A stretch of 64,000 nt of DNA from assembly GCA_003255025.1 (NCBI GenBank), contig QANY01007975.1:434001-498000 (forward strand). The letters run 5' to 3'. Below the pieces are notes generated by a model. The model was not told where the DNA came from. It did not search any database and worked only from the letters and a program-made list of their open reading frames with translations. Origin of the DNA: Datisca glomerata. Its lineage: Eukaryota > Streptophyta > Magnoliopsida > Cucurbitales > Datiscaceae. The translations under genes and the position numbers were made by a program. This document shows positions 1,739 through 61,976 of this stretch, piece by piece (position 1 is the first letter of the stretch; each line of letters starts with the position of its first letter).

Positions 1739-3190
1739 AATTAAAAAGAATTGAAGAACAACGTCGAAATCCCACTCTTCAGAAACGAATTAAAAAGATA
1801 ATTTGTAGAGAATTATGTGATGATATTCCTAATGCATTATAGCACAAGATGCATCATGCTATTAGTCTGCCTTATATTAAGGGATTTGTTGAGAAAAATA
1901 TTTCTACAAAGACATGACCAATTCAGATGAATTATGAAATGTGTGAATTCTATATAAAGAAAATTACAGAACTCCTTAATAAAAATATTATCAGGAAAAG
2001 AAAATTTCCTTGGTCATGTTCTCCCTTTTATATTTAAAAGGCCAGTGAAATTGAACGAGGAGATTCTAGATTAGTCATTAACTACAAGCCCGCTAATAAT
2101 ATTTTAGAATGGATAAGATATCATATACTAAACAAAATGGACTTGTTCAACAAACTTGGAGATGCTGTTGTATTATCTAAGTTTGACATGAAATCTGGAT
2201 TTTAGAAAATTCAAATAAATGAGAACGACTATTATAAAACTGCATTTGTAACTCTATTTGGCTATTATGAGTGGAATGTAATATCTTTTGGTCTAAAGAA
2301 TGCTCCTAGAATATAATTAATGAAATTTTCAACCAATTTACTGATTTCTCAATTGTTTACATTGATGATGTTCTTATTATTTATAAATCAATTTATCAAC
2401 ACTAAAAAAATCTTGAATTGTTTACCAAAATAATAAAATAAAATGGTTTAGTTATACCTGCAAGTAAAATCAAATTATTTTAGTCTAGAGGTAGATTACT
2501 AGGATTTGAGATCCACCATTCTATTATTAAATCAATTGATCGTGTCATACAATTTGCTAATAATTTCCTGATAAAATCTTTGTTAAAACCCAATTACAAC
2601 GATTTTTAGTATCCCTCAATCATATAACAGATTTCTATAACAATTTAAGAATTGATTGCAAGCCTCTTTTTAAAAGGCTTAAGAAAAATACCCCTCCTTG
2701 GACAACTGTTCATATCAATTTAATTAAGAAAATTAAAACTCATGTTAAAACTCTTTCTTGTCTTGGCATCACTACTATTATTCTTTCAAAATTGTTCAAA
2801 CTGATGCTTATGAACTTAGATATAGAGGTATCTTGTTACAAAGATCTCTGTAGAATCACCTGAACAAATTATCAGTTTTACATCTGGAGCTTGGACCCAG
2901 ACTAAAATTAATTATAGTACTATTAAAAAGAAAATTTCAGTTGTTGCGCTATGTATTCAAAAATTTCAGGATGATCTATTAAATAGAAAATTTCTTTTAA
3001 AAATTGATTGTAAGTCTGAAAAACACATGGAAAAAGATGTAAAAAAATTGCTTCCAAATAAATTTTTGCAAGATCGCAGTCTATTTTTAATATTTTTTAT
3101 TTTGATATTTAATTTATTCAATGTATTAATAATTCGATTCTTGAAATTCTAACTCGTGAATTCTTACAGGGTCGACAAGATGGAGTCTAG
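1739..3190 (+). pseudogene. EPRV reverse transcriptase / RNase H
   Basis: Caulimovirid-type RT in several frames. Visible blocks are a V-I-N-Y-K-like motif near 2075-2095, S-K-F-D-M-K-S-G-F at about 2176-2202, the F-G-Y-Y-E-W-N segment at about 2258-2280 and an intact Y-I-D-D catalytic box at 2358-2369. RNase H follows from about 2800 and ends with T-R-E-F-L-Q-G-R-Q-D-G-V and a TAG at 3187-3189. No integrase follows, as expected for a pararetrovirus. Internal stops (for example near 2204 and 2312) make it non-functional. Confidence 0.85.
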
Positions 3191-4558
3191 ACTCCAGGCT
3201 AAGGCCTCCAAAGCCAGAATCGAAGGGGAGTCTTCGACTCCACAATTGGACCTTAAAGCCCAAATCAAAGATGAGTATTCTACTCTTAGTCAAGCCCAAT
3301 TAACAATCTTTGGGTCCATCAGAGCCAATTACCAGTCTGATGGGCCCAAAGATTTCTCAATTTGATCATTTTTCAATTTCTCAAATTTTAATATCCAATC
3401 TCCCAATCAACCAATCAAAAAATACAAAAGCTCATATCCTTACTTAAAAAAATATCCATGCAAAAATTTCTTTCATATTGAGCCTCCATTTGTTCATTTA
3501 AAAGATCTTGCCCAAATTGCAAAAATCCATTTCATTTCTGATTTTCACTATGTCCCTGATCACAAGGACAAGAATCTTAGTTTCTACATAGACATTCTCT
3601 TAAAAACTAAATCCATAAATATTAACCCAATTAAAAGTTCTGAAGGAAATATTCTTTATCATTCCTTCTACATTCTTAAAATTGTGACCATGGAGGATTG
3701 AAAAACTCATCTTTCAGCTCTCAAAATACTATTAAATAAAAAATAATATAATTATTTTGATTATATTAATGCTTGGTATACAGTTTTCCTGCATCAAAAT
3801 ATTGATTTTTCTCACTCCTAGTTCTTGAATTTTGATAAAAGTTGTAAAATTATTTTTCTAAATTGATTTTTAAGATGGTAGTCCATTCACAGTCATGTCT
3901 TAGAATTATTTTCAATATATTTTCAACAATGTTATAATATATATACAAGCCCTCACCAATTGAAGCCTATTTTCCTCAACAACTTAATTTCTCAAACAAA
4001 TGAAAATATACCTTGGATCTTAAAGTAGTAATATGCAATTGAAAATGTAATTCTCACCCGTTAAGATTATGTCAAATAGTGGGACAAATTTAATACTAAA
4101 AAAAAATCATTGCCTCCATTAGCCATGAATTTGCAAATATCCATCCTGACCAAAAATTAGCAAACCTTTTTGCTCAGACTCCACTAAAGATTAATGAGCC
4201 TACTAATCAAGATCCACAAAGTAGACAATCCCATTCAAATTCATATAAAGGATACAAGCCTACCTCCTTAAAAGGAAAATCAAAAGCCATGAAACCTAAA
4301 TCCAAGATGAAGCAAGAATTGATCCAAAAAATACCTTTTTTGAATGATAATAATAATTATGATTCCGAGTCCTCTATAGAGTCAAGTCATTCAATTAAAA
4401 AAAATATTCAAAAAGCCCAATCCACCAGAAAGACTGCCCTTCAACAATTGAAGGTCCTAAATATCCAAAAGGGTTGTGCCCTACCATGGTGGGCTTATGG
4501 TGCATTTCAAGACTCACAAGATCCATTTGAAGATGTTGATATTAGTGATGATAAATAA
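3180..4558 (+). pseudogene. EPRV third ORF (ORF3), function unknown
   Basis: The start ATG at 3180 overlaps the RNase H stop in a different frame (ATGGAGTCTAG). The first 62 codons are open (M-E-S-R-L-Q-A-K-A-S-K), then a TGA at 3363. Later blocks include an E-P-P-F-V-H-L-K-D-L segment near 3480 and a W-D-K-F-N block near 4080, where a stop replaces the preceding Trp. The last 89 codons (4289-4558) are open and end in an acidic tail D-P-F-E-D-V-D-I-S-D-D. The same protein is found at 9803-11141 and 39607-40904, and a diverged one in family 2. By position it could correspond to the transactivator/inclusion-body gene of caulimoviruses, but I see no motif that proves this. Confidence 0.65.
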
Positions 4559-5240: not shown

Positions 5241-5249
5241 CTGAATTCA

Positions 5250-9802: not shown

Positions 9803-11141
9803 TCATTCATCATCACTTTAATGGATGTCATCAAATGGGTCCTGTGCATCTTGAAATGCAGCATAGGCCCATTGTGGCATGACGCGACCGTTTTAGGTAT
9901 TTTGATCCTTCAATTATTGAAGGGTAGTTCTTTTGGTGGATTGAGCTTTTTGGATATTTGGATTTATTGAGTGGCTTCATTCTATAGAATATTTAGAGTC
10001 ATATTTATCACTGTCTTCCAAACGAAGAAGCATTTTTTGGATCAATTCTTGCTTAAGTTTGGATTTAGGCTTCGTGGCTTTTGATTTTTCCTTTGAAGTG
10101 GTTTTGGATTCTTTGGATGAGTTTCAATGAGATTGCTTGGTTTGTAGATTTTGGTTACTGGGCTCAATAATTTTTAATGGAGCCTAGACAAAAGAGTTTG
10201 CCAATTTTAGGTTAGGGTGGATATTTGAAAATTCATGGTTAATGGATGCAACGATTGTTTTGGGTATTGAATTTGTCCCACCATATAACGTAATATTGAC
10301 GGGTGAGAATTCCGTTTTCAATAGCATATTGCCACTTTAGGATCTAAGCTATTTTGTATTTGTTTGAGAAACACAGGAGTTGAGGAGAAGGGGCTTCAAT
10401 TGGTGAGGGCTTGTATATTTTTAGAAATAAATGAATACATTATTTAAAATCTATTGGAAATAGTTATAAGATAGGACCGTGAATTGGCCACCATCTTAAG
10501 AACCAATTTAACCAAGAGTGAAAAAACCCAGTATTTTGATGCATGCAAATTGTATTCCAAGCATCAATACAATCAAAATAATAGAATTATTTTTTATTTA
10601 ATACAGTTTTGAGAGCTAAAGGATGAGCTTTCCAATCCTCCATTGTCACAATTTCAAAAATGTAGAAGGAATGATAAAGAATATCTCCTTCAGGACTTTT
10701 AATTTTGTTAATATTTATAGATTTGATTTCTAAGAGAATATCTCTGTAGAAACTAAGATTTTTGTCCTTGTGACCAGGGACATAATGAAAACATGGAATG
10801 AAATGGATTTTTGCAATTTGGGTAGAATCTTTTAAATGAGCAAATGGGGGCTCAATATGAATGAGATTTTTGCTGGGATTTTTACGAAATTAAGGGGATG
10901 ATTTTTTTTGTATTTTTTGATTGGTTGATCGAGAGATTGGACATCAAAAGGTTTTGAGAAATTGAAAAATGGTCAAATTGATTAACAAGAGCTGATTGGT
11001 AATTGGGTTTGATGGACCCAATGATAGTTAATTGGGCTTGGCTAGGAGTAGAAGACTCCTCTTTGGTTTGTCCATAAGGGTCAATTATGGAGTCGAAGAC
11101 TCCCATTCGATTCTAGCTTTGGAGGCCTTTCTAGACCCCAT
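9803..11141 (-). pseudogene. EPRV ORF3, function unknown (copy C)
   Basis: The start ATG at 11141 overlaps the RNase H stop exactly as in copy A (ATGGGGTCTAG). The end is a TGA at 9803-9805 after an acidic D-P-F-D-D tail with an internal stop. Between them are recognisable blocks: S-S-T-P-S-Q-A-Q-L-T-I (about 11020-11060), an E-P-P-F-A-H-L-K-D-S segment near 10840, and the W-D-K-F-like block near 10280. Several frameshifts are present. It is about 445 codons if intact. Its product is unknown; position suggests an accessory or inclusion-body-like role. Confidence 0.65.
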
Positions 11142-12520
11142 CTTGTTGGCCCTGCATGAATTCACGAATGAGAAAGTCAGGAATCGAATTAATATTTACT
11201 TGAATAAATTCAATAAGGAAATAAAAAATACTAAGAATAGATTGCCATCTAGCAAAAATTTGCTTGGAAGTAAAGTTTTTGACATCTTTTTCCAAAACGT
11301 GTTTTACAAATTTACAAATTTTTTTTAGCATAAATCTTTGATTTAAAAAATCATTTTGGAATTTTTGAATGCATAAAACAACATCTACAATTTCCTTTTT
11401 AATAGTACTATAGTTAATTTGAGACTGGGTCCAAGTTCAGAGGCTTCAGTTTGGATAACTTTGAAAGAATTGACCGTAGGGATACCAAGACAAGGAAGTG
11501 TCTTAACATGCGTTTTATTTTTTTAATTAAATTGATATGACCAGTCGTCGAGGAGGGGGATTTTTCTTAAGAGTTTAAAAAAGAGGCTTGCAATCAATTC
11601 TTAAATTGTTATAGAAATCTGATATGTAGTTGAGAGATCCTAGAAATCATTGTATGACACGAAATAATTTGATTTCAAATCCTAGAAATCTAACTCTAGA
11701 CTGAAATAATTTGATTTTACTTGCAGAGATAACTAAACTATTTTATTCTATTACTTTGGTAAAAAATTCAAGATGTTCTCAGTGTTGATAAATTGATTTA
11801 GAAAAACCAAGAACATCATCAATGTAAACAATTGAGAAATCAATAAATTGGCTGAAAATTTCATTTATTTTATTCTGAAATTCACTAGGAGTATTCTTTA
11901 GACCAAAATGCACTACATTCCACTCATAATGGTCAAATAGAGTTACAAATGCAGTTTTATACTTATCATTCTCATTTATTTAGATTCACCAAAATCTAGA
12001 TTTCATGTTAAACTTAGAGAATACAACATCTCTAAGTCTGTTGATCAAATCCATTTTGTTTGGTATAAGATATATTATACATTCTAAAATATTATTAAGA
12101 GACTTGTAGTTAATGACTAATCTAGGAACTCCTCGTTCAAGTTCATTGGCGTTTTGGACATAAAAGCCAGAACATGACTAAGGAGATTTGTTTTTCCTGA
12201 TAATATTTTTATTAAGGAGTTCTGTAATTTTTTTTTATAGAATTCAAGCATTTCAAAATTCATCTGTATTGGTTATGCCTTTGTAGGGATGTTCTTCTCA
12301 TGAAATCCCTTAATATAAAGCAGACTGATAGTATGATGCTTCCTGTTCTAGAATGCATTAGGAGTATCAGCACAAAATTTTCTCTTTAAAGATTCTAATT
12401 TATTTTTCAAGAGCAAGATTTTGGAATTGTTTTTCAATTATTTTGAATTTTATCTCATCTTGAAGAAAACATAATTGTTTTTCTTTACATGAAATTAAAT
12501 TCATAGTTTTATAAATAGAA
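11131..12520 (-). pseudogene. EPRV reverse transcriptase / RNase H (copy C)
   Basis: On the minus strand the RT includes a V-I-N-Y-K-like block near 12110, a K-F-x-M-K-S block near 12000, E-W-N near 11920, and an intact Y-I-D-D box at about 11813-11830. RNase H fragments run from 11450 to the stop at 11131-11133, ending I-R-E-F-M-Q-G-Q-Q-D-G-V. Stops and frameshifts abound. Relatives copy pregenomic RNA into DNA with this enzyme. Confidence 0.8.
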
Positions 12521-28119: not shown

Positions 28120-28121
28120 AT

Positions 28122-28133
28122 TGGTATCAAAGC
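28122..28133 (+). promoter_or_regulatory. Element E primer binding site
   Basis: TGGTATCAAAGC, two bases after the LTR end, complementary to the initiator-Met tRNA tail with one mismatch (A for G). Confidence 0.8.
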
Positions 28134-30840: not shown

Positions 30841-31214
30841 GCCTGTTATATTGCTGACTCTACTTTTTCTTGTATTGTAGACTTTGCAGCTACTAACCAT
30901 ATATGTTGCTCTTGCAGGGGTTCAGGGAAGTCAGAAGGCTTGACGAGGGCGAGTATGACTTTTGCTGGGGTAATAGAGCACTAGTATCGATCGTATCTGT
31001 GGGAACTTTTAAATTATGTTTTGAGAAACATTTTATTATTTTACGTGATGTTAATTATATCCCAGTTTTTGGGAAGAGTCTTATTTCTATTGGTGCATTA
31101 ATTGATCAACGATTTGATCTTAAATTCATTGATAAAGATATTTGTATTTTTAAAAATGAATGCTTAATTATTGTTGCACGAATGTTTAATACAATGTTTA
31201 ACATAAACCAATAG
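30841..31214 (+). pseudogene. Element E protease region
   Basis: The motif D-F-A-A-T-N-H-I-C at about 30880-30906 stands where copia protease has D-S/T-G-A-T-N-H, so the catalytic Ser/Gly pair is lost. The open frame 30903-31214 continues with the family pattern V-N-Y-I-P-x-F-G-K-S-L-I-S-I-G-A-L and D-Q-R-F-D-L-K-F. It is non-functional. Confidence 0.7.
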
Positions 31215-31960
31215 TTCCAATGATATGTGACACTGAAGTGAATAATGTTTCACAAAGAGATAGTAAAAGGTTGAAGTGTGACTCAACCGATCTAACCTAT
31301 TTGTGGCACTTATGTCTTGGGCATATTAGCCTGGGCAGGATTAAAAGACTTGTGAAAGATGGTCTTTTGCAAACTTTAAGTGTGAGATCAGTACCCACAT
31401 GTCAATCCTGTATTGAAGGAAAAATGATCAAGATACCTTTTTCAACAAAAGGTGAAAGAGCCACTCAAAGCCTTGAACTCAAACATAGTGATATGTGTGG
31501 CCCGTTGAATATTCAAGCAAGAGGGGGTTATGAATACTTCGTAACCTTCACTGATGACTACTCACGTTTTGGTCATGTTTATTTAATGCGTCAAAAGTCT
31601 CAAACCTTTGAAAAATGCAAAGAGTATAATGCCATGGTTAAAAAGCATTTAGAAAAAGAAATCAAAACACTATGATCTGATCGTGGTGGAGTTTACTTAC
31701 TAGGAGTGTTCGAAGACTTTCTTAAGAAATAATCTATTCTTTCTTCTTACAACACCTGGTACACCATAGCAAAATGGTGTGTCAGAGAGAAGGAATTGAA
31801 CTCTGATCGATATGGTTAGATCCATGATGAGCTACTCATCTCTCCAAGATTCCTTATGGGGAAATGCCTTGGAAATAGCGGCATATATTCTAAACCAAGT
31901 TCCATCGAAGACGGTGCCTGGTACACCATGTGAAAGATGGTTTGGATAAAAGTCATCTAT
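31215..31960 (+). pseudogene. Element E integrase
   Basis: The open frame 31220-31675 shows the GAG-pre-integrase zinc finger (L-W-H-L-C-L-G-H-I-S, then C-Q-S-C-I-E-G-K-M) and the rve core: L-K-H-S-D-M-C-G-P-L, Y-F-V-T-F-T-D-D-Y-S-R-F (first Asp). After a stop, S-D-R-G-G-V-Y carries the second Asp. The E-block is garbled near 31770-31800. Later text W-G-N-A-L-E-I-A-A-Y-I-L-N in another frame is also typical. A short duplicated word around ACACCTGGTACACCA (31748-31763, related to 31915-31930) is present. Confidence 0.8.
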
Positions 31961-32440
31961 TAACCATTTTAAAATATGAAGGATGTTCCAAAACCAAAGA
32001 CAGGCAAGTTGGCCAGTCATTCAGAATTATGCATGTTCATAGGATATCCTAAAGGAACAAATGAGTACATCTTCTACAGTACAACTGACCAGAAAATATT
32101 CGATAGCATGAATGCACATTTTCTTGAAGAAGATTATATTAAAAGTGTACAGCTGAGAAGCATTTGTGCTAGAGGAATTATTAAGTGGGAGGACATCAAC
32201 TTCTCAATCAGAAATTATTTCTGATTTAATAATGGAAGAACCATGAAAGGAGCCAGAGCCTATGGAGCCTCGACGTAGTGAGATGGTTGTGAGATAACCT
32301 GAGAGGTATACGTACTATGGAGAAGCTTTGACAAGTATCTCAGATAAGGAACTTGATGAACCTGTCTCCTACTCAGAGGCCATGGCCAGTCCTGAAGTAA
32401 ACTTATGTAAGAAGTTATGAACGTTGAGATACATTCGATG
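31961..32440 (+). pseudogene. Element E integrase tail and spacer before RT
   Basis: The open frame 31976-32224 has the copia signature F-I-G-Y-P-K-G-T-N-E-Y-I-F-Y. This C-terminal integrase/spacer region always precedes copia RT. The following 200 bases contain a P-R-R-S-like block around 32265-32320 typical of the spacer. Frames are broken. Confidence 0.7.
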
Positions 32441-33480
32441 TACTCGAATGGAGTCTGGAAGCTTGTAGATCCTCCGAAGGGGTAAAACCCGTAGGATACA
32501 AATGGGTCTATAAGAAGAAAAGAGGTCCATATGGGAATGTAGGGACATTCAAATCTAGGTTGGTAGCTAATGGCTACACCTAAAAGGAAGGTATTGACTA
32601 CGAGGATACCTTCTCGCCTATGGCCATGCTTAGATCCATCTGAATCGTTTTATCCATTGCTGCTGCCCTTGATTATGAAATCTGGCAAATGGACGTCAAG
32701 ACTTCTTTTCTGAATGACAATCTTGATGAACGCATTTATATGGCTCAACCAGACAGATTCATGGAAAAATTCCAAGAGGGTAAAGTTTACGAACTACAGA
32801 AGTCCATTTATGGACTTAAGCAAGCGTCACGATCGTGGAATATTAGATTTGACAAAATTGTTAAAACCATGGTTTTGAATAGTTAATGGATAAGCCCTGT
32901 GTGTATAAGTTTTTACATGATGGGAAGGTGGTTTTTCTAGTTTTGTACATAGATGATATTCTACTCATTAGGAATGATGTAGGAAAATTATCTGATGTCA
33001 AGATTTGGCTTGCAAAGTAATTTGATGTGAAGGATCTTGGAGAAGCTACATTTGTCTTAGGTATTCAGATCTTTCAACATAGGAATAATAGACAATTGAT
33101 ATTGTCTCAAGCATCTTATATTGTTAAGGTGTTGGATCACTTCAGTATGCAAAACTCCAAAAAAAGGATTTTTTTCGTTTAGACATGGAGTCAGCCTCTC
33201 CAAAGAGCAGTCTCCCAAGACTCCTAAAGAAGAGGAAATTATGAGAAAGATTCCCTATGCCTCAACTGTAGGAAGTCTCATGTATGCGATGCCTAGCACT
33301 AGGCCAGACATTTGCTATGTCGCGGGCGTGGTGAGTCATTTCCAATCTAATCCTGAAATCGAGCACTGGAATGCCGTCAACCATATCCTTATGTATCTGA
33401 GGAGAACAAGTAACTACATGCTTGTGTATTCAGGTACTGACCTTAATATGACAGGGTATACTGATTCTGATTTATAAGGG
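32441..33480 (+). pseudogene. Element E reverse transcriptase
   Basis: The blocks run W-K-L-V-D-P-P-K-G (about 32455), G-Y-K-W-V-Y-K-K-K (32500), E-G-I-D-Y-E-D-T-F-S-P (32590-32620), I-W-Q-M-D-V-K-T-S-F-L-N (32680-32715), S-I-Y-G-L-K-Q-A-S-R-S-W (32805-32840), and the catalytic Y-I-D-D at 32946-32957 in another frame. These identify Ty1/copia RVT_2. Stops are present near 32580, 32640 and 32883, and frameshifts near 33150. Confidence 0.9.
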
Positions 33481-33885
33481 GACAAGGATTCTAGGAGGTC
33501 CACTTCAGGATCGGTGTTCATCCTGAACGGTGGAGCAGTTGTATGGAGAAGTATCAAGCAATCTTGCATTACTGATTGTACCATGAAAGCTGAATATGTG
33601 GCAGCTTGTGAAGCTGCAAATGAGGTTGTATGGCTTAGGAAGTTCTTGAAGACTCTGAAAGTTGTTTCAAACGCTGACAAGCCCATGACACTTTATTGTG
33701 ATAATAATTGGGCTTTAGATAATTCTAAGGAACCTAGAAGCCATACGAGATCCAAACACATAGAACGTAAATATCACATGAGTAGAGAAATTGTTCAGCA
33801 TGGAGACGTTGTGGTTACATATATTTCGACGGTCAACAACCTAGCAGATCCATTCACGAAGACTTTAAACAGTAAAGTTTTTTAA
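33481..33885 (+). pseudogene. Element E RNase H
   Basis: The open frame 33514-33885 includes G-G-A-V-V-W-R-S-I-K-Q, M-K-A-E-Y-V-A-A-C-E-A (catalytic Glu block), L-Y-C-D-N-N (Asp), and K-H-I-E-R-K-Y-H-M-S-R-E, ending A-D-P-F-T-K-T-L. The preceding G-Y-T-D-S-D-L (first Asp) lies at 33457-33477 and is followed by a stop. This is the standard copia C-terminus; the TAA at 33883-33885 precedes the polypurine tract. Confidence 0.9.
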
Positions 33886-33935
33886 GATCATTTGGAGGGC
33901 TTGGGATAAGAGATTGTATGCGCCTACTTTAGTCC

Positions 33936-33945
33936 AAGTGGGAGA
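33936..33945 (+). promoter_or_regulatory. Element E polypurine tract
   Basis: AAGTGGGAGA immediately before the 3' LTR start (TGTTGG at 33947). It would prime plus-strand DNA synthesis. Confidence 0.8.
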
Positions 33946-33946
33946 T

Positions 33947-36462
33947 TGTTGGAATATGTCCATAACGTAGCATGTAATGACTATTTATTTGTATTTATTT
34001 ATTTCCCAGACATTAATATTATTGAATTCTTATGAATAAATTGAAAGTTTTATTTTAAATTAAAGTGTGTTTATAAATTACTCAAGTCCTAAAATTTTCA
34101 TCAACGAATGAAGAGTGAACACAAAAGTGTCTCCAGACGAACTCTTTTAAGAAAGTTCATAACGATATTTGCAGTCTTAGGATCAACTGGATAATCAAAT
34201 CCGATAACCAATGGATGCCAGTCTTAGGTCATGGGAGTGGAGACTGAAACGGTTAACCTAGACATGTTATGGACATGTTAAATAGACTAGTAACAAATTA
34301 GTTTAAAACCAAAAACTATTAACCAAGCCCTAAATCTAATTGTTACACCTTAAGGGTATTTTTATAATTATCTTAATCCTGAGGTGAATACGTAGCTTGA
34401 CTTACTTAATTGCAATCTTTAATATATCAAATGAGTGAATTCTAAATTGACGGGCAATACCTTAACTTTTGGGATTGTAATTCAATTAAGTTGGAGTTAC
34501 TTGATTCACAGATATGAAAATTCATGGTGTGATTGCGAAAGTAACAATATCACCTTATGTTTTAATGATGGGTGTATGAATAAATTAACCTGGTCAGGTA
34601 TTCAATGAATTGAGTCATTGATTAAGACTTGTGAATTTGTACGAGACAATTCACTATTATGTCTTTCTTATTCACAGTCAATAAAGGAGTTAAGGAAGTA
34701 ATAACAAGAGGGGTAAAATGATAATTTTTTATTCCACTCTTGTTACTGATATTCACGATGTGTATTATGTTAAAATATTTTGTGGACCGTGAAAAAATGG
34801 TTTATTTACACCAACAGAAAATGTAGCGCGCATGAATCAAGCGTTGATTCGACATCGAACCTATAGTGAAGTCATATGATGTCAGGATTAAATAGGTCAG
34901 GAATTTATGGAGATAAATTCACCAGGTATTTCAATCATTAGCTTTGTTCATGTTGGTTTATGCGGTTTCAGAAATAGCTAATGAGAAAATGAATAGATAA
35001 ACGAAGTAAAATGGATCAAAATGTGTTTTCGTGCTAAGGCATATTTACTATACCTATATGTGATGGGTAAGGTCACTTAATTAGTTTAGTGTGATTATAT
35101 GTATCGAAATTTATTAGTTTATTATTTTATAATTAGTGGATAATTAATAAATAAAAATAAATAAATTAATAATAATGATCAATTAATTTATCAATTAGAT
35201 CGATGAATCTTGATACAACTCAAACTCTAGGGAATATTTCAATTTTCGGCAATTATGAATATATGAGGTGAATTTTAAAAAATTCAAAAATATATGGATA
35301 TATTTGTAAATATCAAAAATTATTTTTTATCAATATCTATTGGCAATCTGATTGCAAATAGATCTTGGATAAGATACAGTTACTTGTTAACAAAGAAAGT
35401 GGAGAAAAACGTTTTCCCCTCCCTCCCTGTTACCGCCGAAAATTATATTGAATGAGAAATTTTTTTATTTTCCTTCTTCAATCGTTTTGAGAGCCCACAC
35501 TCAAATTTCTACACAAAAATCTCAAGAGATATATTTATGAAATTAATGGGTGGTTGTTGGTGGATGAAATTCGTAAAACATCCTTGGAGCTCAATTGCGT
35601 GATTCGGATCTTGCTGCTTGAAGAACACAAAGAACGCTGGAAGGAATTTCGCAAGTTAAAAAATTCTCTGATTTTTTTATTCTCACCTTATCTCGTCGTT
35701 TAATGTCATATATACATAATCGAGCGTCGTTTGGTTTTAAGTTATTCAATTTGATTAAATAAGTTAATTGAATTTTCTTTTGATATTCCACCCACGTAAA
35801 TTGTGATGTCACTTAATTAGTTATGTGTAATTATATGTACTGAAATTAATTAGTTTACTATTTTCTTATTATTTGAATATTGCAATTTCCGGCAATTATG
35901 AATATATGTGATGAAGTTTTAGAAATTTAAAAATATATGGGTATATTTGTAAATATTAAAAATTACATTTTATCAATATCTAATAACAATCTGATTGCAG
36001 ACAGATCTTGGATAAGATACAGTTACTTGTTAACAAAGAAATTGTAGAAAAACATTTCCCCCTCCTCCCTGTTGTCACCAAATATTATGTTGAAGGAGAA
36101 AATTTTTTATTTTTCTTCTTCAATCGTTCTGAGAGCCCACACTCAAATTCCTACACAAAATTCTCATGAGATATATTTATGAAATTAACGGGTGGTTGTT
36201 GGTGGACGAAATTCACAAATCGTTCTTCGAGTTCAAGTGCGTGATTCAGATCTCGATGCTTGAAGAACATGAAGAACGCTCGAAGGAATTCTGCCAGTTC
36301 AGTAATTCTCTGATACAAAGTATAAGTGAAAAAATTTGTTTCTAACATTATCTTCTCGTTTAATGTCGTATATACATAATCGCACGTTGTTTGGTTTTAA
36401 GTTATTTAATTTTGATTAAATAAATTAAATGAATTTCTTTTTAAAACAAACTGGGCCCAATA
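33947..36462 (+). repeat. Element E 3' LTR with internal partial duplication
   Basis: A first unit (33947 to about 35800) aligns with the 5' LTR almost to its end. At about 35805 the sequence jumps back to the part equivalent to about 27310 (GTGATGTCACTTAATTA) and runs again to a CCCAATA end at 36462. The LTR is therefore about 2.5 kb instead of 1.94 kb. Confidence 0.8.
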
Positions 36463-38600: not shown

Positions 38601-39056
38601 TACTGGGAATTTTTACTGCTAGAGAATGAATTACTCCTAAATAACATACACATCATAAAAGATAATTAAATTATTCTTATGTCTAAGAAGTAATAACGCA
38701 AGTGAGCAATTAGACAACAATACTAACAATAATAATAAACACTTGGGCGAAGAAGAAGAACAATAATTAAGCAAGTAATAAGCAAGTGTCACAACAACAA
38801 TAAAAATAATAACCAGCCATTTAGGCTGAGAAAGATTCAACATTGAAAGAAAATCAAAACTTACAAGATTAATAGGTTGAAATTTTGATTTGTAATGATT
38901 AATTAGTGCTCCCACTCACTAATTAATATTGAAAAGAAAGAAGAAAAGATTTCAAAAGAGGAGAAGAAGAAAGCTTTATTTTTTAAAACACATTTTTCTT
39001 TCAAAATGAGTATGAGTGAAAACCAAGCACTCAATCACAAATGGGAGAGTGCAGCC
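38601..39056 (-). other. EPRV leader with hairpin (copy F)
   Basis: Leader homologous to 8640-9290 but shortened. Decayed GGGCG words lie near 38750 and 38820, and the palindrome is at 38898-38927 (ATTAATTAGTG loop CACTAATTAAT). The primer site has been lost, replaced by a direct join near 38830. Confidence 0.6.
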
Positions 39057-39065
39057 TATTTATAG
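39057..39065 (-). promoter_or_regulatory. TATA box of EPRV pregenomic promoter, copy F
   Basis: The minus strand reads CTATAAATA in the same context as at 5072 and 9296. Confidence 0.65.
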
Positions 39066-39606
39066 ACAAAGGGAGTGGAGTTCATTGGGAACCCATAATT
39101 TACCTGCACTATTCTTTTCTACTAAAGTAAAAAATATTTTATGCTATAACTTTTGACTAGGTGAAGAAAAAAGAACAACTAATCATCTAATCTTTAGACA
39201 ATTTACACAATAATTCTAAAAGAAGACAAATTACAAAGATTCTTGATAATTGATATCTTTAAAATTGTATCTTGATTATTGTTTCATGTGGAGGAGTCAT
39301 AATTGTTATCTTGAAAAATCATTATGATTATTGTTTCATGTTGGAGAGTCATCATGACATCTTGAAATTGCTTCATCTTTGAATTCCTTGACTTTTGATA
39401 ATGTCTTTTGGCATTTTTCCAAGAATAAATTCTTTTATTCAATTGTTAGAATTTTTTCATTTTGCTAAGAATAAAGTCTTCTATTCAACCATTGATCAAT
39501 CTGAAGTTTTGGCGATTTTTCCAAAAGAAGATTCCTTTTTCCTTTTCTTTTTCTTCTTTTTCTTTTCTTTTCTTGTCTTTTGTTTTCCTTTTATTTATTT
39601 ATTCAG
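39066..39606 (-). other. EPRV intergenic/enhancer region (copy F)
   Basis: Homologous to 9305-9802. It contains TTGTTTCATGTKGGAG words at about 39280-39345 and a T/C-rich tract at 39530-39600. No gene. Confidence 0.55.
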
Positions 39607-40904
39607 TCATTCATCATCACTTAGATTGATGTCATCAAATGGGTCATGTGCATCTTGAAATGTGTCATAAGCCCATTGTGCAAGATACGACCCTTTCGGG
39701 TATTTTGGTCCTTCAATCGTTGAAGGGGAGTCTTTTTGGTTGATTGAGCCTTTTGGGTATTTGGTTTAATTGAGTGGCTTGACTCTACAGAGTCAGATTT
39801 ATTATCTTCCAAAAGAAGAAATATTTTTTTGGATCAATTCTTGCTTGAGTTTAGATTTGGGTTTTGTGGCTTTTGATTTTTCTTTGGAAGATTTTGGCTT
39901 GGACTCTTTAGAAGAGTTTGAACGAGCTTAACCTATTGTGTATTTTGGTCAATGACTCATTAATTTTTAATGGAGCTTGGTTAAAAGGATTTGCCAATTT
40001 TAGGTTAGAGTGAATATTTATAAATTGATGGTTAATAGGGGCAATATTTTTTTGGGTATTAAACTTATCCCACCATTTAACATAATATTGGAAGGTGAGG
40101 ATCCCATCTTCAATTACATATTGTCACTTTAGGATCCAAGATATTTTGTATTTGTTTGAGAAACAAAGGAGTTGAGGGAAGGAGGCCTCAATTGCTGAGG
40201 GCTTGCATAATTTTAAAAATAAATTAAAACATTGTTGGAAATCAATTAGAAGTACTTCTAGGACGGGACCGTGGACGCACCACCATCTCAAGAACTAATT
40301 TGAAAAATCAATTTTAAAAGTTTTATCAAAATTCAATAAGCAAGAGTGAGAAAAAACAATACTTTGATGCAGGAAAATTGTATACCGAGCATTTATATAA
40401 TCAAAATAATTTTATTATTTTTTATTTAATATTATTTTGAGAGATGAAGGATGAGCCTTCTTCCTATCCTCCATGGTCACAATTTAAAGAATGTAGAAGG
40501 ATGGTAGAGAATCTTTTCTTCATGATTTGTAATTGGGTTAAAATTTACGGATTTAGTTTCCAAGAGAACGTCTATGTAAAAACTGAGAATTTTTGTCTTT
40601 GTGACCAGAGACATAATGAAAATCAAGAATGAAATGAATTTTTTCAATTTAAGCAGGATCTGTTTTATGAGCAAATGGGGGCTCAATATGAAAGAGATTT
40701 TTGCTGGGATTTTTTTGGAAGCAAGGGGATGATTTTTTGTAGTGATTGGTTGATTGAGAGATTGGGCATCAAAAGGCTGAGAAATTGAAAAATTGCCAAT
40801 TTCATTAATAAGGGGTGATTGTTAATTAGGTCTGATGAACCCAAAGATTGTTCAATGGGCTTGGCTAGGACTCCTATTTAATTTGAGCTTTAAAGGCCAA
40901 TTGG
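39607..40904 (-). pseudogene. EPRV ORF3, function unknown (copy F)
   Basis: The TGA at 39607-39609 follows a D-P-F-D-D-I-tail. The open C-terminal part (39621-39812) reads S-V-E-S-S-H-S-I-K-P-N-T-Q-K-A-Q-S-T-K-K-T, matching copy A. The W-D-K-F block lies near 40070. The N-terminal part near 40850-40904 matches copy A up to the A-Q-I-K region, then is cut off by the foreign segment at 40905, so the start codon is missing. Confidence 0.65.
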
Positions 40905-41495
40905 TCGATCCATTCATCGACCTTACATGCTTTCTTAAAGTGATACTGATTCTTGTTTTAGTTACAGATTCCACAGTATACCTATGACCTTTTTGATATC
41001 CGTGAGGCATGACGAAAAAAGTTCCTTCCTGTATAAAAAATACTTTGACTAATTTATCTGAAAACTTAATTTTAAAAATTTCCTGTCCCAACAGGCTCAC
41101 AGTTTAAATTTTACTGTCTTTATAACAAATTTCATTATCTTTGTGAAAATCTATTTTCCCACAATTTTCATACAATTGAATCAGTGTTGCGCTGAAGTCA
41201 TGTTAACCCAACTTCTTCCAGAATTTTATCCAATTCATCGACCCATTCATTACTTGAATATTTAAACCCGTTATGACTGTAATCAATAAATGAAACCTTT
41301 GAGAAAAATGTAGTTGTCCTTCCATTAAGTTTTTTTATTTTAAATGAATTTTTGTTGAGCATTCTGGGCTTTACTTTTCTCTATTCTTTGAGATAGTTAA
41401 AAATGTTTGATAGGTCAAAATTTTCAAATTCCTCCATGGTAGGAACTTGAAATGATTTTCTTTATGCAAATGGGTTAGAAAATAGGGCATTATTA
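40905..41495 (-). pseudogene. AlkB-like 2OG/Fe(II) dioxygenase domain fragment, flexivirus-replicase type
   Basis: Minus-strand translation, over two frames with three breaks, shows an AlkB domain. First comes a pre-domain with F-I-D-Y-S-H-N-G (about 41255-41290) and N-E-W-V-D-E-L-D (41220-41250). Then come A-T-L-I-Q-L-Y-E (about 41180-41205), D-F-H-K-D-N-E with the Fe-ligand H-x-D at 41134-41145, L-L-G-Q-E-I-F-K-I (41070-41100), V-M-P-H-G-Y-Q-K-G-H with the third Fe ligand His at 40984-40986, and R-I-S-I-T-L-R with the 2OG-binding Arg pair (40935-40960). Cellular AlkB repairs alkylated nucleic acid; in plant flexiviruses it is a replicase domain thought to protect RNA. No other EPRV copy here has it. 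A stop and frameshift near 41205 and a stop near 41107 make it dead. Confidence 0.75.
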
Positions 41496-41740
41496 ATGTA
41501 AACAATAGAAAAATTAGCAAATTGGTCGAAAATATCTTGAAATTCACTAGGAGCATCTTTTAGACCAAAATGTATTACATTCCATTCATAATGGATATGC
41601 ATACGAGTATCACTGGCAGATGACAAAGATGCTTTTGTCTTCTTGAAGTACTTGGTAGGAACAAATCTTTCATGCATACAATTTAAGTTAGTTCTTGAAT
41701 CAATAAGTGCCATAGCTGTGAAATTAAAGTCTTGGATAAT
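41496..41740 (-). pseudogene. EPRV protease N-terminus fused to RT catalytic region (copy G)
   Basis: One open frame of the minus strand runs from the protease active site M-A-L-I-D-S-R-T-N-L-N-C-M (Arg replacing catalytic Gly) through S-S-A-S-D-T-R-M-H-I-H-Y directly into RT text E-W-N-V-I-H-F-G-L-K and V-Y-I-N-N. About 0.8 kb was deleted where both parts encode a similar H-I-H-Y / H-Y-E-W word. Y-I-D-D has become Y-I-N-N exactly at the junction with the foreign segment. Confidence 0.75.
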
Positions 41741-41945
41741 AATTCTGATCATTTTGTGCTATTTTTAATTTTGATGTGATTAAAGGTTTGAAGGAAGTTT
41801 TCATCATCTTGTATGTTGACAACATGTTCTTTAATATCATTACCTAAATGAATTGGGGTTTTACTAGGTTCTCATAATTCATTAACCTCATGGGTTTTTA
41901 ATTAATTTTTTTAGTTTTAAAAGATTTGATTCTTTTGTTATTTCA
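41741..41945 (-). pseudogene. EPRV segment upstream of protease (copy G), truncated
   Basis: Matches 12900-13090: the acidic segment ending before the protease. The coiled coil and zinc knuckle that should precede it are missing; at about 41945 the sequence jumps to the coat core. Confidence 0.55.
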
Positions 41946-42440
41946 GAGTTTGAATCTTATAAATTTTTCTTTCCAGAAGGGTTGATTACTATTATCCCTA
42001 GCCATAACTCTGGACAAAAGAATATTTTTGTACCAGTCAAAATCACTTAAGGTAGGACACCTAAGATTAGTTAATTGATGATGAATACGCGATGTAATAT
42101 TACTTGGCGCCCCAGTTAAATGTTCAAATATTGTGTAAAAGAGTGTATTAATAGCATCAATAATATTACTTGGCTTCCCAACATCAATCTTTATTGTCGT
42201 AATAATGGTATTTTTGGATTCTTGGGTGAGATGTTTTTCCCACCATGAATGAAACATTCTTATAAATCCTGTGACTAAGAGTTTTATAACCTCATTTTGA
42301 GGTAGATTGTGGTGGTAATGTAACTATTGGCCACCATATCCATGTGTTGTAGTTTATTGAGGACTTCTTATTCTGAAAGCTCATCAATATTCAATTCATA
42401 CAATTTTTTGGCAGAGACAAAAAATGGATTAACTAAAGAA
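41946..42440 (-). pseudogene. EPRV coat protein core (copy G)
   Basis: The open frame 41943-42257 reads W-W-E-K-H-L-T-Q-E-S-K, then I-N-T-L-F-Y-T-I-F-E-H-L, R-C-P-T-L-S-D-F-D-W-Y-K and N-Q-P-F-W-K-E-K-F-I. This is the best preserved coat-protein block of family 1 in the window. The upstream part (42258-42440) holds Y-E-L-N-I-D-E-L-S-E-like text with stops. The G-W-W-D block of family 2 aligns with the W-W-E here. Confidence 0.7.
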
Positions 42441-43370
42441 GACTCAGTGATTTAAATATCTGGAGGAATGGGCCTTTTATGCCACTTCTTCTCAAGTTTA
42501 TTAATTTCAAGATTTTTGAATGTTTCTTCTACATTATTAATTATGGATGATTCATAGGAAGAGTCGGACCTATGACTTTCAGAATCAGAATTATTGTCTT
42601 GGTTAATCACCTTAACATAAGAATATGACTCAATAGACTTATTTTTAAGTTCTTGGAGCATTTGGTAAATCTTATTTTTTAGGGGAAACAATTTTAAAGT
42701 ATTACATGAAAGATTTATTAAAGGAGTTTTTTTTCTGGAAATTGTCAGAATTAGGTAAATGAATATCACCAACCTTATTCTCAATTTTGTCTAATTACTT
42801 TCTTATTGTAATTAAACTTTGATTTGTGTAATTAAGTTGTTCAAAAATCTTTTTATTGGTTTCATCCTCATTGAAAGTCTTATAAGGAGAGGCAGTAATT
42901 AAAGAATTTTTTTTATTGATAATAATTTTTTCAGGTGGGGAATGACCAACAGTCACCCAATTGGAATCTGCTTTGATCCATTCGGTCTTAGAGATGACTT
43001 TAATTTTCTTTTCATAAATGTCTTAAATATAATCAAGGAAGAAAATATCAATCCTAAATTCTTGCATAAATGTCTTCCACTCAGCAATGATAATTTCTCT
43101 TAATCCATATTATAGGTTTATCAAAACATATTACGTCTATTAAGGTTGGTTGGATCATTCATGTGTTGGGTTAGACCTTTCCAATCAGACTTGTATTTTT
43201 GGCTTCAGGTGCCTAAATTAAGAACTAAGAGTTGGGAATTAATAGGAGGTAAGACTCTTTGAAAATCAGAGGCATTAAGTGATTCAGATTCATCAGATTT
43301 TTCAGTCTTATTATTAAAGATTGGCTGACTGAACTAGGAGTTAGTGACTATACCTTTAAGTCTTAAATTT
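42441..43370 (-). pseudogene. EPRV linker (copy G)
   Basis: Matches 6700-7640, including the Asp/Ser-rich stretch D-N-N-S-D-S-E-S-H-R-S-D-S-S (open frame 42452-42784). No named domain. Confidence 0.6.
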
Positions 43371-44309
43371 TTTATTTTTATTTTTTAATTCTAGTTCTAA
43401 TTGATGGATTCTAAGAACTTGGTCATTATTAACAATAGATCCAAGAAATGGAATTTCTAGGAGTGCTGATCTTACTAAACTTTGGGGATTGGATCTGAAA
43501 GATTGTAAATTAATTTTAATAATACCATCCATATATTTTTGAATATGATAAATATCTTCAATAGTTCGTTGAATAGGAGTGAGTTGGCTTTCATTGGCTA
43601 AAAGTCTATTTGTAGGCAAAGTAATATCAGACGACCTATTGGATTTAGGGACTCTAATATTAGTATTACTTTGATTGGATTAAATCAAAGGAGACTAGGT
43701 ATTAGGATTTCTATTGATGGCTTGGAAATTCATATTGGTTTTGGTAGCTTTGCAATGAACTCTAAAAATCAAAGCTAGGTGCTAGACACCTTCAAAGATT
43801 TTGTAACCTCTAGTTTTGATATTCAAGGTTAATGTTTTAAGAATGTGAGGATCGTGTAAGCTCACCTAAAAATTAGGAAAGCAATCAAAATGGATTGGAC
43901 CACCACAAAGAGAAGATTCAATTAATTCTAAGATACAATCATTAAAATTGTTGAATCTTACATCACGCAAGGCTAACAAGACATAAGTATTTAAGCTTCT
44001 TCGTGAGTAGTTTTCCTCCAATTTGGACTAAACCAAAGTGAAGAAAATTGTATCATTCTTCAATGTGATGTTTAATTGAATTAAAGGATAATACTTGGCA
44101 AGATTCGTGCTCTTTTCTTACAACATATATTTTTTAAATGTTTTAACATTTGTAAATTTCTAGACTGGTAGTTTTAGGTATATTCCATACCTTATGATTA
44201 CGTGATCATCAGCTAAATATTCAACATGTTCTTCATTAATTATGTTAGATATTATATTTATTGTAGATCTACTGCTATAAGAAGAAATTCTTCTAAGTAA
44301 CCCTCTCAT
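43371..44309 (-). pseudogene. EPRV movement protein, 30K-like (copy G)
   Basis: Starts at 44309 on the minus strand and matches the other copies throughout, including the D-x-R-F-x-N-like Asp block near 43965, the following I-L-E-L-I block and the Cys/Phe-rich F-D-C-F-P. The C-terminal part (open frame 43356-43619) reads S-Q-L-T-P-I-Q-R-T-I-E-D-I-Y-H-I. Broken by frameshifts. Confidence 0.7.
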
Positions 44310-44700
44310 CGTGCAAGTCAACTAAATTATTTTTATGTCTAAGAATTTCATCATATATTTTGATTAACAACTCTGCTATCACTTCCACAATCTCCTATGA
44401 AGTTTAACCATTCGCCCCTTTGCCTCTCAATAGCTACCCTACCCTTGCAATTTATAGTCTCACAAAAGGTCTTACTAGGGTACCTCAAGAAAACCTAATA
44501 GGAACATATACGTCAATAACCAGCCACTTGGACGGAGAGTCAGATTAAATGGAAATAATTAAGCAAGTGAGCAAGTAGAAATAATAAATAACCAGCCACT
44601 TGGGCGGATTACAAGATTAATAATTAAGCAAGTAGTAAATACTCTACTAGGTTTGGCTCTGATACCAAAAGACAAGGTGTACGAACAAATGGTTGTTGTT
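44310..44700 (-). other. EPRV leader with primer site (copy G)
   Basis: Leader with two CCACTTGGACGGA / CCACTTGGGCGGA words (about 44523-44538 and 44597-44610) and an intact tRNA-iMet primer site at 44655-44667 (TGGTATCAGAGCC on the minus strand). Confidence 0.75.
44655..44667 (-). promoter_or_regulatory. tRNA-iMet primer binding site, copy G
   Basis: Minus strand TGGTATCAGAGCC, identical to that at 9016-9028. Confidence 0.85.
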
Positions 44701-59330: not shown

Positions 59331-60730
59331 TTAACAAAATTTCAAACTGAAATTTATAGTGATTTTCCTAATGCTTTTTGGAATAGGAAGAAACATATTA
59401 TTTCTCTCCCTTATCACCAAGATTTTGATGAAAAATATATTCCTACTAAATCTAGACCTAGCAGATGAGGAAGGAATATCTTGATAATTGCAAAACAGAA
59501 ATTGAATCCCTTTTACAGAAAAAAAAACTCATTAGACCAAGTAAGTCTCCCTAGAGTTGTACAACATTCTATGTTTACAAAAATGTTGAGATTGAATGAG
59601 GACAATCTCATTTAGTTATTAATTTGAAACTGCTTAATGATGCACTCCAAAGGATCAGGCATCTCATCTCGAATAAGAAGGATCTTTTAGATCGTTTACA
59701 TGATTCAGTAATTTTTTCTAAGTTTGATTTAAAATCAGGATTTTGGCAAATCCAGATTGCTGAACATGACAGGTATAAAACAGCATTCACCGTACCCTTT
59801 GGCCATTATGAATGGAATATTTTACCATTCAGAGCTAAGAATGGACCATCAGAATTTTAACATATCATGAATGATATTTTCAATCCATATACTGAATTTA
59901 TTATCTGTTACAATGATGATGTTTTAATTTTTTTCATCATCCATTGATCAACATGTCAAGCATCTGCATATTTTTAAGAATATTATTATCAGAAATGGCT
60001 TTTTTTTATCTGCTTCTAAGATGAAACTTTTTCAAACTGAAGTTATATTTTTAGGACATAATATTTCTAATTGAAATATTATTCCTATTAACAGAAGCAT
60101 AGATTTTGCATCTAAATTTCCTGATGAAATTAAAGACAAAACTCAATTACAAAGATTTTTAGGAAGCCTAAATTATGTTAGAGACTTCTATCTGCAGTGT
60201 GCTCAGGATAGCTCTATCCTTTACAACAGACTTAAGAAGAATCCTTCACCTTGGACAGCTGAACGTACTCTAGCAGTAAAAAAGATAAAACAAAAAAATA
60301 CAACAATCACATTGTTTATCTTTACCTAACCTTATGTGGCAAAAGATTGTTGAACATATGCCTCTAACCAGGGATATGGTGGGATCCTTAAATAGGTAAA
60401 TCCCTGTAATCAGAAAGAAGAACTCCTTAGGTTTACCTCTGGAGTTTGGAAAGGACCAGCACTTAATTATCCAACCATTAAACAGGCATGTTTAGTAATT
60501 CTTAAATGTGTTATTAAATTTCAGGATGATTTACTTAACTAGCATTTTCTTATTAGAGTTTATTGTTCTGCAACTAAATAAATATTTAAGAAAGATGTAC
60601 AGAATCTGGCTTCAAAACAGATATTTGCTTCTTGGAAAAGCTTATTATCAACATTTGATTTTGATATTGAACATATTAAAGGTGAAAAAAATTCTTTGAC
60701 AGACTTTCTAACCCGCGAATACTTACAGGG
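59331..60730 (+). pseudogene. EPRV family 2 reverse transcriptase / RNase H
   Basis: The best preserved RT here is the open frame 59624-59860: F-S-K-F-D-L-K-S-G-F-W-Q-I-Q-I and F-G-H-Y-E-W-N. The catalytic box is Y-N-D-D (59909-59920), an I-to-N change with both Asp kept. Then come F-L-G-H-N-I-S (60050-60070) and R-F-L-G-S-L-N-Y (60153-60180). RNase H includes F-T-S-G-V-W (60432-60450) and ends T-R-E-Y-L-Q-G at about 60710-60730. No integrase follows. Confidence 0.9.
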
Positions 60731-61976
60731 TTCAGAACAAAAATCAAGGACGTGGTCGTCGAGGTCGCGGTAGGGGAAATCCCTACACAACGGAATTCCC
60801 AAGCTTAAACAAAAATATAAATAGCATAGAAGAGGCTTCTTCTAGAAAATGTGTTAAAGATGTCTTTCTTATACCAGAATAGTATATATTTAACAGCATT
60901 ACTGAGGAGGTTATTCTCTTTATCGAAATCGCAGATGAGCAATGGATGTCAGAATTTCCCGCTCATTTTGAATGGTATCGATACATTTATGAAGCCATTG
61001 TGCTTGAAACAACAGCCATAGAGATTAAGCATACACTCCATGATTCTACTAGAACTACCAGTCCTATTACTTACAGTAAGGCAACAATCAGAAATATTAT
61101 GCCTATTGGGCAATGGGGTTTACATCCTCATACGACCAGAAGTCTTGAGATCGGCAACAAAGAAGCCAAATATAATTAATGGGATTATATTAATTCTTTT
61201 ACCTATGTCTTCTACTATCAGAATCCAATGCATAATCATACTTGGTTCATAAGAATATGTCCTGAAGTTCTTAAAAATGAGCTTCCCAATTGGTTCCTCT
61301 TTTGCTGGGATAAATTTGGGATTACTCTTGACACTTTACAAGAATCTGTCATATCAACATTTAATGAATGGAAATCTGCCTATTTACTCTTACCATTTAA
61401 CAAAATTCATCTCCATGTCAAAATCAGTAACCTATTTTATTATTCAATTCAGCATCCCCTGGATATGGAAATGGGATCTTCAATGTGACTATCAAAATAA
61501 AATGCCACATCTTAAAATGGTGTTTTACACAAAATGGTGGGATAAGGGGATGAACCCCAATTTACCAGAACTAATGAAGGTAATCAAAGTCCACACACAA
61601 GCATGTCTTGATGCTACTCCTAAAGCTCTCACAGCATCAATAGAAAATTCGTTTGTCTTAGCCCAAATAGAATTAAAAAAGAAATTTCTAGATTTAACAG
61701 AAAATGAGTTAATTTAAAAGACTATGGACTTCATGAAGGAGTAATTTCTATAGTCCATAGGATCAACAGATACTTTCATGAAATCTGCAAGCGGTAAAAT
61801 AGAATCTGATCATGATGATGAGAAGAATGGATTCAGTATTCTGGCAGGTGAAAGCCAGGACCCAGAACATGACCTACAAGACCCAAGAGCCTACCATCGG
61901 CGACTTCTGGGATTCTCTTACTTGCATGATATCAGAAAAAATTGATAAAGACAAGAAAGGAGAAAGCAAGGAATAA
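60731..61976 (+). pseudogene. EPRV family 2 ORF3 with RG-rich N-terminus, function unknown
   Basis: The frame just after RNase H opens with N-Q-G-R-G-R-R-G-R-G-R-G-N (about 60740-60780), an Arg/Gly-rich nucleic-acid-binding-like patch. Further blocks are W-Y-R-Y-I-Y-E-A-I-V-L-E (60970-61005), Q-N-P-M-H-N-H-T-W-F-I-R (61220-61255), W-F-L-F-C-W-D-K-F-G-I (61290-61325), and F-Y-T-K-W-W-D-K near 61525, and an acidic end. K-W-W-D-K also occurs in family-1 ORF3, supporting homology. Stops at about 60880, 61178 and 61716 interrupt it. Confidence 0.65.

What the first reader, a model, noticed from the sequence alone, without database searches (positions are those of the whole stretch)
40905..41495. 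AlkB-like dioxygenase domain of RNA-virus type captured inside an endogenous pararetrovirus
Seen: a ~590-bp minus-strand segment absent from the other family-1 copies (A and C have uninterrupted RT-RNase H there) encodes, with breaks, an H-x-D iron pair (41134-41145), M-P-H-G-Y-Q-K-G-H with the third His, and R-I-S-I-T-L-R with the 2OG Arg. Established: this arrangement, and the M-P-x-G-F/Y-Q-x-x-H text, is typical of AlkB domains in plant flexivirus replicases; caulimovirids are not known to me to carry AlkB. Inference: template switching between an RNA-virus genome and a pararetroviral pregenome produced a chimera that integrated. It would be both a fossil RNA virus and a record of RNA/pararetrovirus recombination.
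Basis: partly seen in the sequence, partly recalled or inferred. Interest (0 to 1): 0.9.

Follow-up and report, generated by a model that had tools for sequence, protein, structure and literature searches.

The report
Fossil AlkB demethylase inside endogenous pararetrovirus
A decayed pararetrovirus copy in what looks like a plant chromosome carries, where its relatives keep the end of their reverse transcriptase, the broken remains of an AlkB RNA-repair enzyme domain resembling those of plant RNA viruses, which hints at ancient gene exchange between two very different kinds of virus.

Summary
Largely right. About 570 nt (41474-40905, minus) of an endogenous caulimovirid copy (~44667-38841) have no significant second copy in the window and encode, in three broken pieces, an AlkB-type 2OG-Fe(II) dioxygenase. 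The C-terminal piece scores 25.5 bits on an AlkB profile (1000 shuffles, 839 scored, none as high). Pfam hits for two pieces are weak but collinear. Copy C has RT-RNase H there, and A and D align with it. Correction: the His taken as third iron ligand is not the ligand; the ligand position reads Tyr. H-x-D and R-x5-R are intact. MPxGxQxxH is not flexivirus-specific (26 IMG/VR AlkBs share it). However, ligand-to-Arg spacing is 9, as in a published plant RNA-virus alignment, against 12-14 in those 26 and 12 in human ALKBH2/3. RNA-virus-like origin is thus favoured, not proven: no flexivirus or plant ALKBH sequence could be compared. Whether the join formed in a virus, at integration or later is open. 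The copy is defective. I found no report of AlkB in a caulimovirid. Single copy, no reads, host genome unreachable.

The parts
38841..44667 (-). Endogenous caulimovirid copy B, internally deleted and chimeric
   Evidence: blastn blocks to other copies at 76-83% identity; DUF7746 in 41946-42323
41946..42323 (-). B: gag/coat-like piece (DUF7746, weak caulimovirus coat domain)
   Evidence: PF24925 E 5.7e-6, PF22909 E 0.042
41465..41758 (-). B: protease piece fused by a deletion to the RT palm (YINN where A and C read YIDD)
   Evidence: Peptidase_A3B E 0.0054, RVT_1 E 0.0083, both below cut-off; frames; about 805 nt missing relative to C at a shared ATTATGA
41475..41488 (-). Left junction zone: end of homology to A and C within RT, after the YIDD motif
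   Evidence: local alignments end at 41475 (against C) and 41488 (against A)
41381..41474 (-). Insert, 5' part without recognised similarity, with in-frame stops
   Evidence: no significant second copy in window; frames
41201..41380 (-). Insert: N-terminal piece of the AlkB domain (by position only; no support on its own)
   Evidence: ORF; no Pfam hit; profile score not above shuffles
41107..41202 (-). Insert: AlkB piece with the H-x-D iron motif (41145-41137); in another frame from the piece before it, ends at a stop
   Evidence: translation; PF13532 E 0.027, profile 94-116 of 194
40921..41103 (-). Insert: C-terminal AlkB piece, MPHGYQKGHRY..RISITLR; Tyr at the iron-ligand position, R-x5-R intact
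   Evidence: PF03171 E 0.0073; AlkB profile 25.5 bits, none of 839 scored shuffles as high; alignment A1
40903..40910 (-). Right junction: homology to A resumes behind A's polyprotein stop
   Evidence: local alignments
38841..40902 (-). B: region behind the polyprotein, homologous to C 9086-11047 and A 3243-5240
   Evidence: blastn
2264..3243 (+). Copy A counterpart: RT palm, then the RNase H stretch aligned to C, then a short noncoding stretch, no AlkB
11047..11932 (-). Copy C counterpart: RVT_1 then RT_RNaseH, no AlkB
59555..60737 (+). More distant copy D: RT and following region aligned to A 2173-3172 as one block
   Evidence: 64.6% over 1041 columns; RVT_1 E 2.5e-11 in 59600-59857

Best explanation
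Copy B is a defective endogenous caulimovirid. In it a piece encoding an AlkB (2OG-Fe(II) dioxygenase) domain of plant-virus type was joined by non-homologous recombination between the RT palm and the stretch behind the polyprotein, in place of the RT thumb and RNase H. Shown: an AlkB domain, its place, the substitution, and the broken state of B. Inferred: the donor was a plant RNA-virus replicase or another AlkB-bearing plant virus; the join arose by copy-choice during reverse transcription or by end-joining of DNA during integration; in the donor the intact enzyme removed methyl groups from viral RNA. As it stands B makes no working enzyme.
For: AlkB identity: profile score, alignment, ordered weak Pfam pair. 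H-x-D and R-x5-R, published hallmarks, are present. Ligand-to-Arg spacing is 9, as in the plant-virus alignment. Homologous caulimovirid sequence on both sides, with RT-RNase H in C, and A aligned to it, at that place. B shows another deletion joined at a 7-nt direct repeat (ATTATGA), the same class of event. Among the 50 BFVD rows listed, the highest identity (30%) is a Betaflexiviridae entry, weak at E 3.1.
Against: No sequence match to any flexivirus protein was obtained. The middle and N-terminal pieces are weak alone. The Pfam E-values are in the range that unrelated families reach on other pieces. MPxGxQxxH is shared by 26 IMG/VR AlkBs, and published work says plant-virus AlkBs resemble bacterial ones (PMC544882 passages), so a bacterial-type donor is not excluded. 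Spacing could have changed by in-frame indels during decay. The fold models matched nothing significantly. Single copy, no reads.
Confidence: 0.55

Rival explanations
1. AlkB was a regular domain of an unsampled caulimovirid lineage, placed at or behind the end of the polyprotein, and B is an internally deleted copy of that virus. RT thumb and RNase H were lost by a separate deletion like the others in this copy.
For: B has other internal deletions relative to the other copies. AlkB sits at the end of the polyprotein position, and homology resumes behind A's stop. AlkB appears to have been gained separately by several plant viruses (PMC9249622 and PMC5731686 passages).
Against: No other ORF of 20 aa or more in the window, so none in A, C or D, passes the inclusion threshold of the AlkB profile. 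No relative found in IMG/VR or GTDB contigs or in the protein collection. A domain screen of 121 angiosperm genomes, whose consensuses included 423 endogenous Caulimoviridae, reports a 2OG domain only in orchid consensuses (PMC9289625, section 12).
Confidence: 0.25
2. A cDNA piece of an RNA virus was inserted into an already integrated EPRV copy in the chromosome, with loss of local sequence, as for other endogenised RNA virus pieces.
For: A flexivirus replicase piece is known in a plant chromosome (cucumber CsFRLS1, PMC3136472 passages). The insert is chromosomal today.
Against: It stands in place of about 870 nt of A-type sequence, between viral domains and in the same orientation. No other RNA-virus domain appeared among the Pfam hits of the 19 pieces scanned.
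Confidence: 0.12
3. A host ALKBH gene or a retrotransposon-borne ALKBH (as in orchid Gypsy elements) supplied the domain.
For: Precedent of AlkB capture by a plant retroelement (PMC9289625). Raw identity of the C piece to ALKBH3 (12 residues) is within the range for the IMG/VR proteins (11-17).
Against: The orchid domain is ALKBH5/9/10-like according to that paper. Here the C piece has MPxGxQxxH, absent from ALKBH2/3, alignment scores of 20 and 24 to ALKBH2/3 against 35-74 to 16 IMG/VR proteins, and spacing 9 rather than 12. The IMG/VR scores are favoured because that set was chosen by motif.
Confidence: 0.06
4. The join is an assembly chimera.
For: Only one copy is seen; no reads could be checked.
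Against: The insert is in the same orientation as its surroundings and, like them, broken by stops and frame changes; a chimera would not be expected to put a viral-type domain there.
Confidence: 0.02

Closest known systems
AlkB domains of plant positive-strand RNA viruses (Alpha-/Betaflexiviridae, Closteroviridae, Secoviridae, two potyvirids)
   Same: H-x-D, R-x5-R, 9 positions between iron-ligand position and 2OG Arg
   Different: here next to a pararetroviral RT, broken, Tyr at the third ligand position
Orchid Ty3/Gypsy elements with a functional m6A demethylase domain (PMC9289625)
   Same: AlkB domain captured by a plant reverse-transcribing element
   Different: there a separate, multi-copy ORF of ALKBH5/9/10 type with shown activity; here a single broken copy in a caulimovirid
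Endogenous caulimovirids (ECVs/EPRVs)
   Same: coat/DUF7746, protease and RT pieces; rearranged copies
   Different: AlkB in place of RT thumb and RNase H
Endogenised flexivirus replicase piece CsFRLS1 of cucumber (PMC3136472)
   Same: flexivirus-type sequence in a plant chromosome
   Different: there a piece related to the 5' half of a flexivirus genome near a retrotransposon-like sequence; here a short AlkB piece inside an EPRV

Membership tests
AlkB / 2OG-Fe(II) dioxygenase | profile match | tested here: met
   C piece 25.5 bits, none of 839 scored shuffles as high; PF03171 and PF13532 weak, below curated cut-offs
AlkB / 2OG-Fe(II) dioxygenase | H-x-D iron pair | tested here: met
   41145-41137
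AlkB / 2OG-Fe(II) dioxygenase | third iron-ligand His | tested here: not met
   Tyr at that position; position assigned from ALKBH3/ALKBH2 alignment. Filed as a decayed AlkB remnant, not as a working AlkB
AlkB / 2OG-Fe(II) dioxygenase | R-x5-R | tested here: met
   RISITLR, 40953-40933
AlkB / 2OG-Fe(II) dioxygenase | jelly-roll fold | tested here: inconclusive
   half-domain model, pLDDT 66.5, no Foldseek match at E <= 0.001 in BFVD or PDB
Plant RNA-virus AlkB | spacing ligand to 2OG Arg of 9 | tested here: met
   9 here, columns 91 to 100 in PMC544882 text; 12-14 in 26 of 26 IMG/VR AlkBs
Plant RNA-virus AlkB | grouping with flexivirus AlkBs in a tree | not testable with these tools
   no flexivirus sequence was fetched
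Plant RNA-virus AlkB | neighbouring methyltransferase, helicase or RdRp | tested here: not met
   none among the Pfam hits of the 19 pieces scanned; neighbours are caulimovirid
Endogenous caulimovirid | coat/DUF7746, aspartic protease and RT in order | tested here: met
   (protease and RT weak in B itself, RT clear in C and D)
Orchid Gypsy AlkB element | ALKBH5/9/10-type domain in an LTR element | tested here: inconclusive
   no plant ALKBH sequence at hand; motif and spacing differ from ALKBH2/3

The most novel reading that the evidence does not exclude
A lineage of plant pararetroviruses carried its own AlkB RNA demethylase domain, acquired from an RNA virus, and copy B is its fossil: a reverse-transcribing DNA virus with an enzyme that removes methyl marks from its pregenomic RNA.
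Probability: 0.25. Interest if true: 0.87.

Novelty: new variant of a known kind. Interest (0 to 1): 0.62.

Why it matters
Among plant viruses AlkB is described from positive-strand RNA viruses. Finding it inside a pararetrovirus would record genetic exchange between RNA viruses and reverse-transcribing DNA viruses of plants, and would raise the question whether methylation of pregenomic RNA has been a target of host defence. One AlkB-specific search of the host genome and of related genomes would go far to decide between a one-off join and a lost kind of virus.

Tried and rejected
Close relatives of the AlkB C piece: none in IMG/VR, in GTDB contigs, in the protein collection at short length or at long length, or by sequence in the PDB. 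One search was probably ill-posed: the words are drawn from the first 500 residues and my piece stood behind the padding. One search repeats it with the piece first; 6 candidates shared words, none scored E <= 10. NCBIfam gave two unrelated weak hits (0.016 and 0.15). RT piece of copy C and AlkB N piece: no relatives in IMG/VR.

A half-domain AlphaFold model was too poor for fold matching. The betaflexivirus row (rank 26 of 176 matches, 50 listed) is a hint only.

Rejected: that MPxGxQxxH marks flexiviruses. A loose motif scan of IMG/VR returned 27 loci; 26 encode an AlkB-like protein with it in frame, L016 does not. They are viral contigs, presumably phages; hosts were not checked. From the 26, the profile used those with cut-outs over 150 aa (number not printed), alignment A1 used 16 (my script found no start for 5 and I left out 5 more), and A2 used 8. 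The set was chosen by a motif taken from the window, so its profile is not wholly independent; the Pfam models are independent but weak.

Literature (open-licence PMC only): AlkB with caulimovirid, 8 papers (6 opened at passages or one section, PMC11281624 and PMC7874184 not opened). AlkB domain with badnavirus, 1 paper (opened at passages). AlkB with pararetrovirus, 11 papers (3 opened at passages). Oxygenase with endogenous pararetrovirus, 5 papers (none opened). AlkB with endogenous viral element and plant genome, 2 papers (both opened at passages). Endogenous caulimovirid, 15 papers (3 opened: PMC10377300 and PMC13308828, neither holding oxygenase or demethyl-, and PMC9289625). Searches (8 papers; 19, of which 10 listed) looked for viral AlkB in general. 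None of what I read describes AlkB in a caulimovirid.

Full report
What is there. The region is a repeat landscape of plant type (inferred from the repeat families; the host was not identified) with several copies of one caulimovirid family. Self-comparison of the window shows copy B on the minus strand from about 44667 to 38841. It is related at 76-83% to copy A (plus strand, about 963-5240), to copy C (minus strand, about 14018-9086) and to a block at 6232-9028. Pfam finds DUF7746 and a weak caulimovirus coat domain in B (41946-42323), then weak protease and RT signals in 41465-41758. In C the corresponding stretch carries RVT_1 (E 1.3e-8) and RT_RNaseH (E 4.5e-5), and A aligns with C there. 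A more distant copy D (59.7-60.7 kb) aligns with A through RT and the following region as one block and has RVT_1.

The insert. B follows A and C through the RT palm to 41488 (A) or 41475 (C), and homology resumes at 40903, in the stretch behind A's polyprotein stop. The roughly 570 nt between have no significant second copy in the window: the best other blastn match is 29 nt with E 0.006, and no other ORF of 20 aa or more passes the inclusion threshold of an AlkB profile. They stand in place of about 870 nt of RT thumb and RNase H in A. It is thus a substitution, not a simple insertion.

It is AlkB. Three open pieces carry it: 41201-41380, 41107-41202 and 40855-41103. They are separated by a change of frame and a stop, and further stops lie upstream. 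The last piece scores 25.5 bits on a profile of AlkBs from IMG/VR. Of 1000 shuffles 839 returned a score, none as high (best 6.4). It is the only ORF of 1907 over the inclusion threshold (E 2.1e-6, next 2.4). Pfam, whose models are independent of my choice, gives 2OG-FeII_Oxy for it (E 0.0073 to 0.028 depending on the cut) and 2OG-FeII_Oxy_2, the AlkB family, for the H-x-D piece (E 0.027), in the right order. Both are below the curated cut-offs, and unrelated families reach such E-values on other pieces here (NCBIfam 0.016). Their weight therefore lies in two adjacent pieces pointing to one superfamily in the right order. The first two pieces alone do not stand out on the AlkB profile: 100 of 917 and 91 of 853 scored shuffles do as well.

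Catalytic residues. The published hallmark of AlkB is H-x-D, a later His and R-x5-R (PMC544882, passages). H-x-D and R-x5-R are present. When the IMG/VR AlkBs are aligned to solved ALKBH3 and ALKBH2, the first H of H-x-H falls on Trp and the second on His, so the second is the ligand (general knowledge of ALKBH enzymes); the window reads Tyr there. With the stops and the frame change, B's AlkB is expected to be inactive.

Which AlkB. The MPxGxQxxH text is common: a scan of IMG/VR with a loose form of it gave 27 loci, 26 of them with an AlkB-like protein in frame. The spacing between ligand position and 2OG Arg is more telling. In the published alignment of plant RNA-virus AlkBs the two columns are 91 and 100, also 9 apart (text; the figure is not held). 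Gaps in that alignment would make the true spacing 9 or less. It is one feature in a decayed sequence and an in-frame indel could mimic it. That same paper reports that plant-virus AlkBs are nearest to bacterial ones among non-viral proteins. The better alignment score to the IMG/VR proteins (35-74 for 16) than to ALKBH3 and ALKBH2 (24, 20) agrees with a plant-virus AlkB but also with a bacterial-type one; by raw identities ALKBH3 (12) falls within the range of the 16 (11-17), and the 16 were chosen by motif. A low-confidence half-domain model (pLDDT 66.5) gave no significant structural match in BFVD or PDB. Among the 50 BFVD rows listed, the highest identity (30%) belongs to a Betaflexiviridae entry at E 3.1.

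How it arose. B carries another deletion relative to C, joined at a 7-nt direct repeat (ATTATGA), and lacks a further block. Such joins are typical of copy-choice during reverse transcription and of end-joining (general knowledge), and rearranged ECVs are well described (PMC10377300, passages). The AlkB join may be one more of these, with a foreign partner, or B may descend from a caulimovirid that already had AlkB at its polyprotein end. The data do not separate these. Either way B lacks RT thumb and RNase H and, by inference, could not have replicated by itself.

Known or new. AlkB is described in several families of plant RNA viruses, in phages and in giant viruses (PMC9249622 and PMC9452765, passages), and a functional ALKBH5/9/10-type domain is known in orchid Gypsy elements. 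The screen behind that work scanned consensuses from 121 angiosperm genomes, 423 of them classed as endogenous Caulimoviridae, and reports the domain only in two orchids (PMC9289625, section 12 and passages); this speaks against a widespread AlkB-bearing caulimovirid. I found no report of AlkB in a caulimovirid, in an open-licence library only, with the unopened papers told under Tried and rejected. I rate it a new variant of a known kind: a chimeric ECV with an AlkB remnant. That orchid screen made me lower the novel case from 0.27 to 0.25 on checking.

Limits. No flexivirus or plant ALKBH sequences were at hand, so there is no tree. There is one copy and there are no reads.

Noticed in passing
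963-9028: Copy A (plus strand) and a minus-strand copy of the same caulimovirid family meet head to head at about 5240-5247, an inverted arrangement of ECV pieces.
   Followed up: no
41575-41605: In copy B about 805 nt between protease and RT palm are missing relative to C, joined at a shared ATTATGA.
   Followed up: partly
42455-42790: A 112-aa piece of copy B matches the Pfam antitoxin model SocA_Panacea at E 2.4e-5, just under its cut-off; probably spurious, and a warning about weak Pfam hits here.
   Followed up: no
56023-56460: Copy D encodes a well kept DUF7746 domain (E 2.2e-31), with a CCHC zinc knuckle ORF at 55168-55668.
   Followed up: partly
26182-36443: Three related blocks (26182-28057, 33946-35789, 35875-36443) at about 84-86% identity, on the plus strand, family not identified.
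   Followed up: no
62673-63128: Low-complexity repeat (seen in its translation, and self-matches) beyond copy D; ECVs are reported to prefer (TA)n sites (PMC10377300, passages).
   Followed up: no
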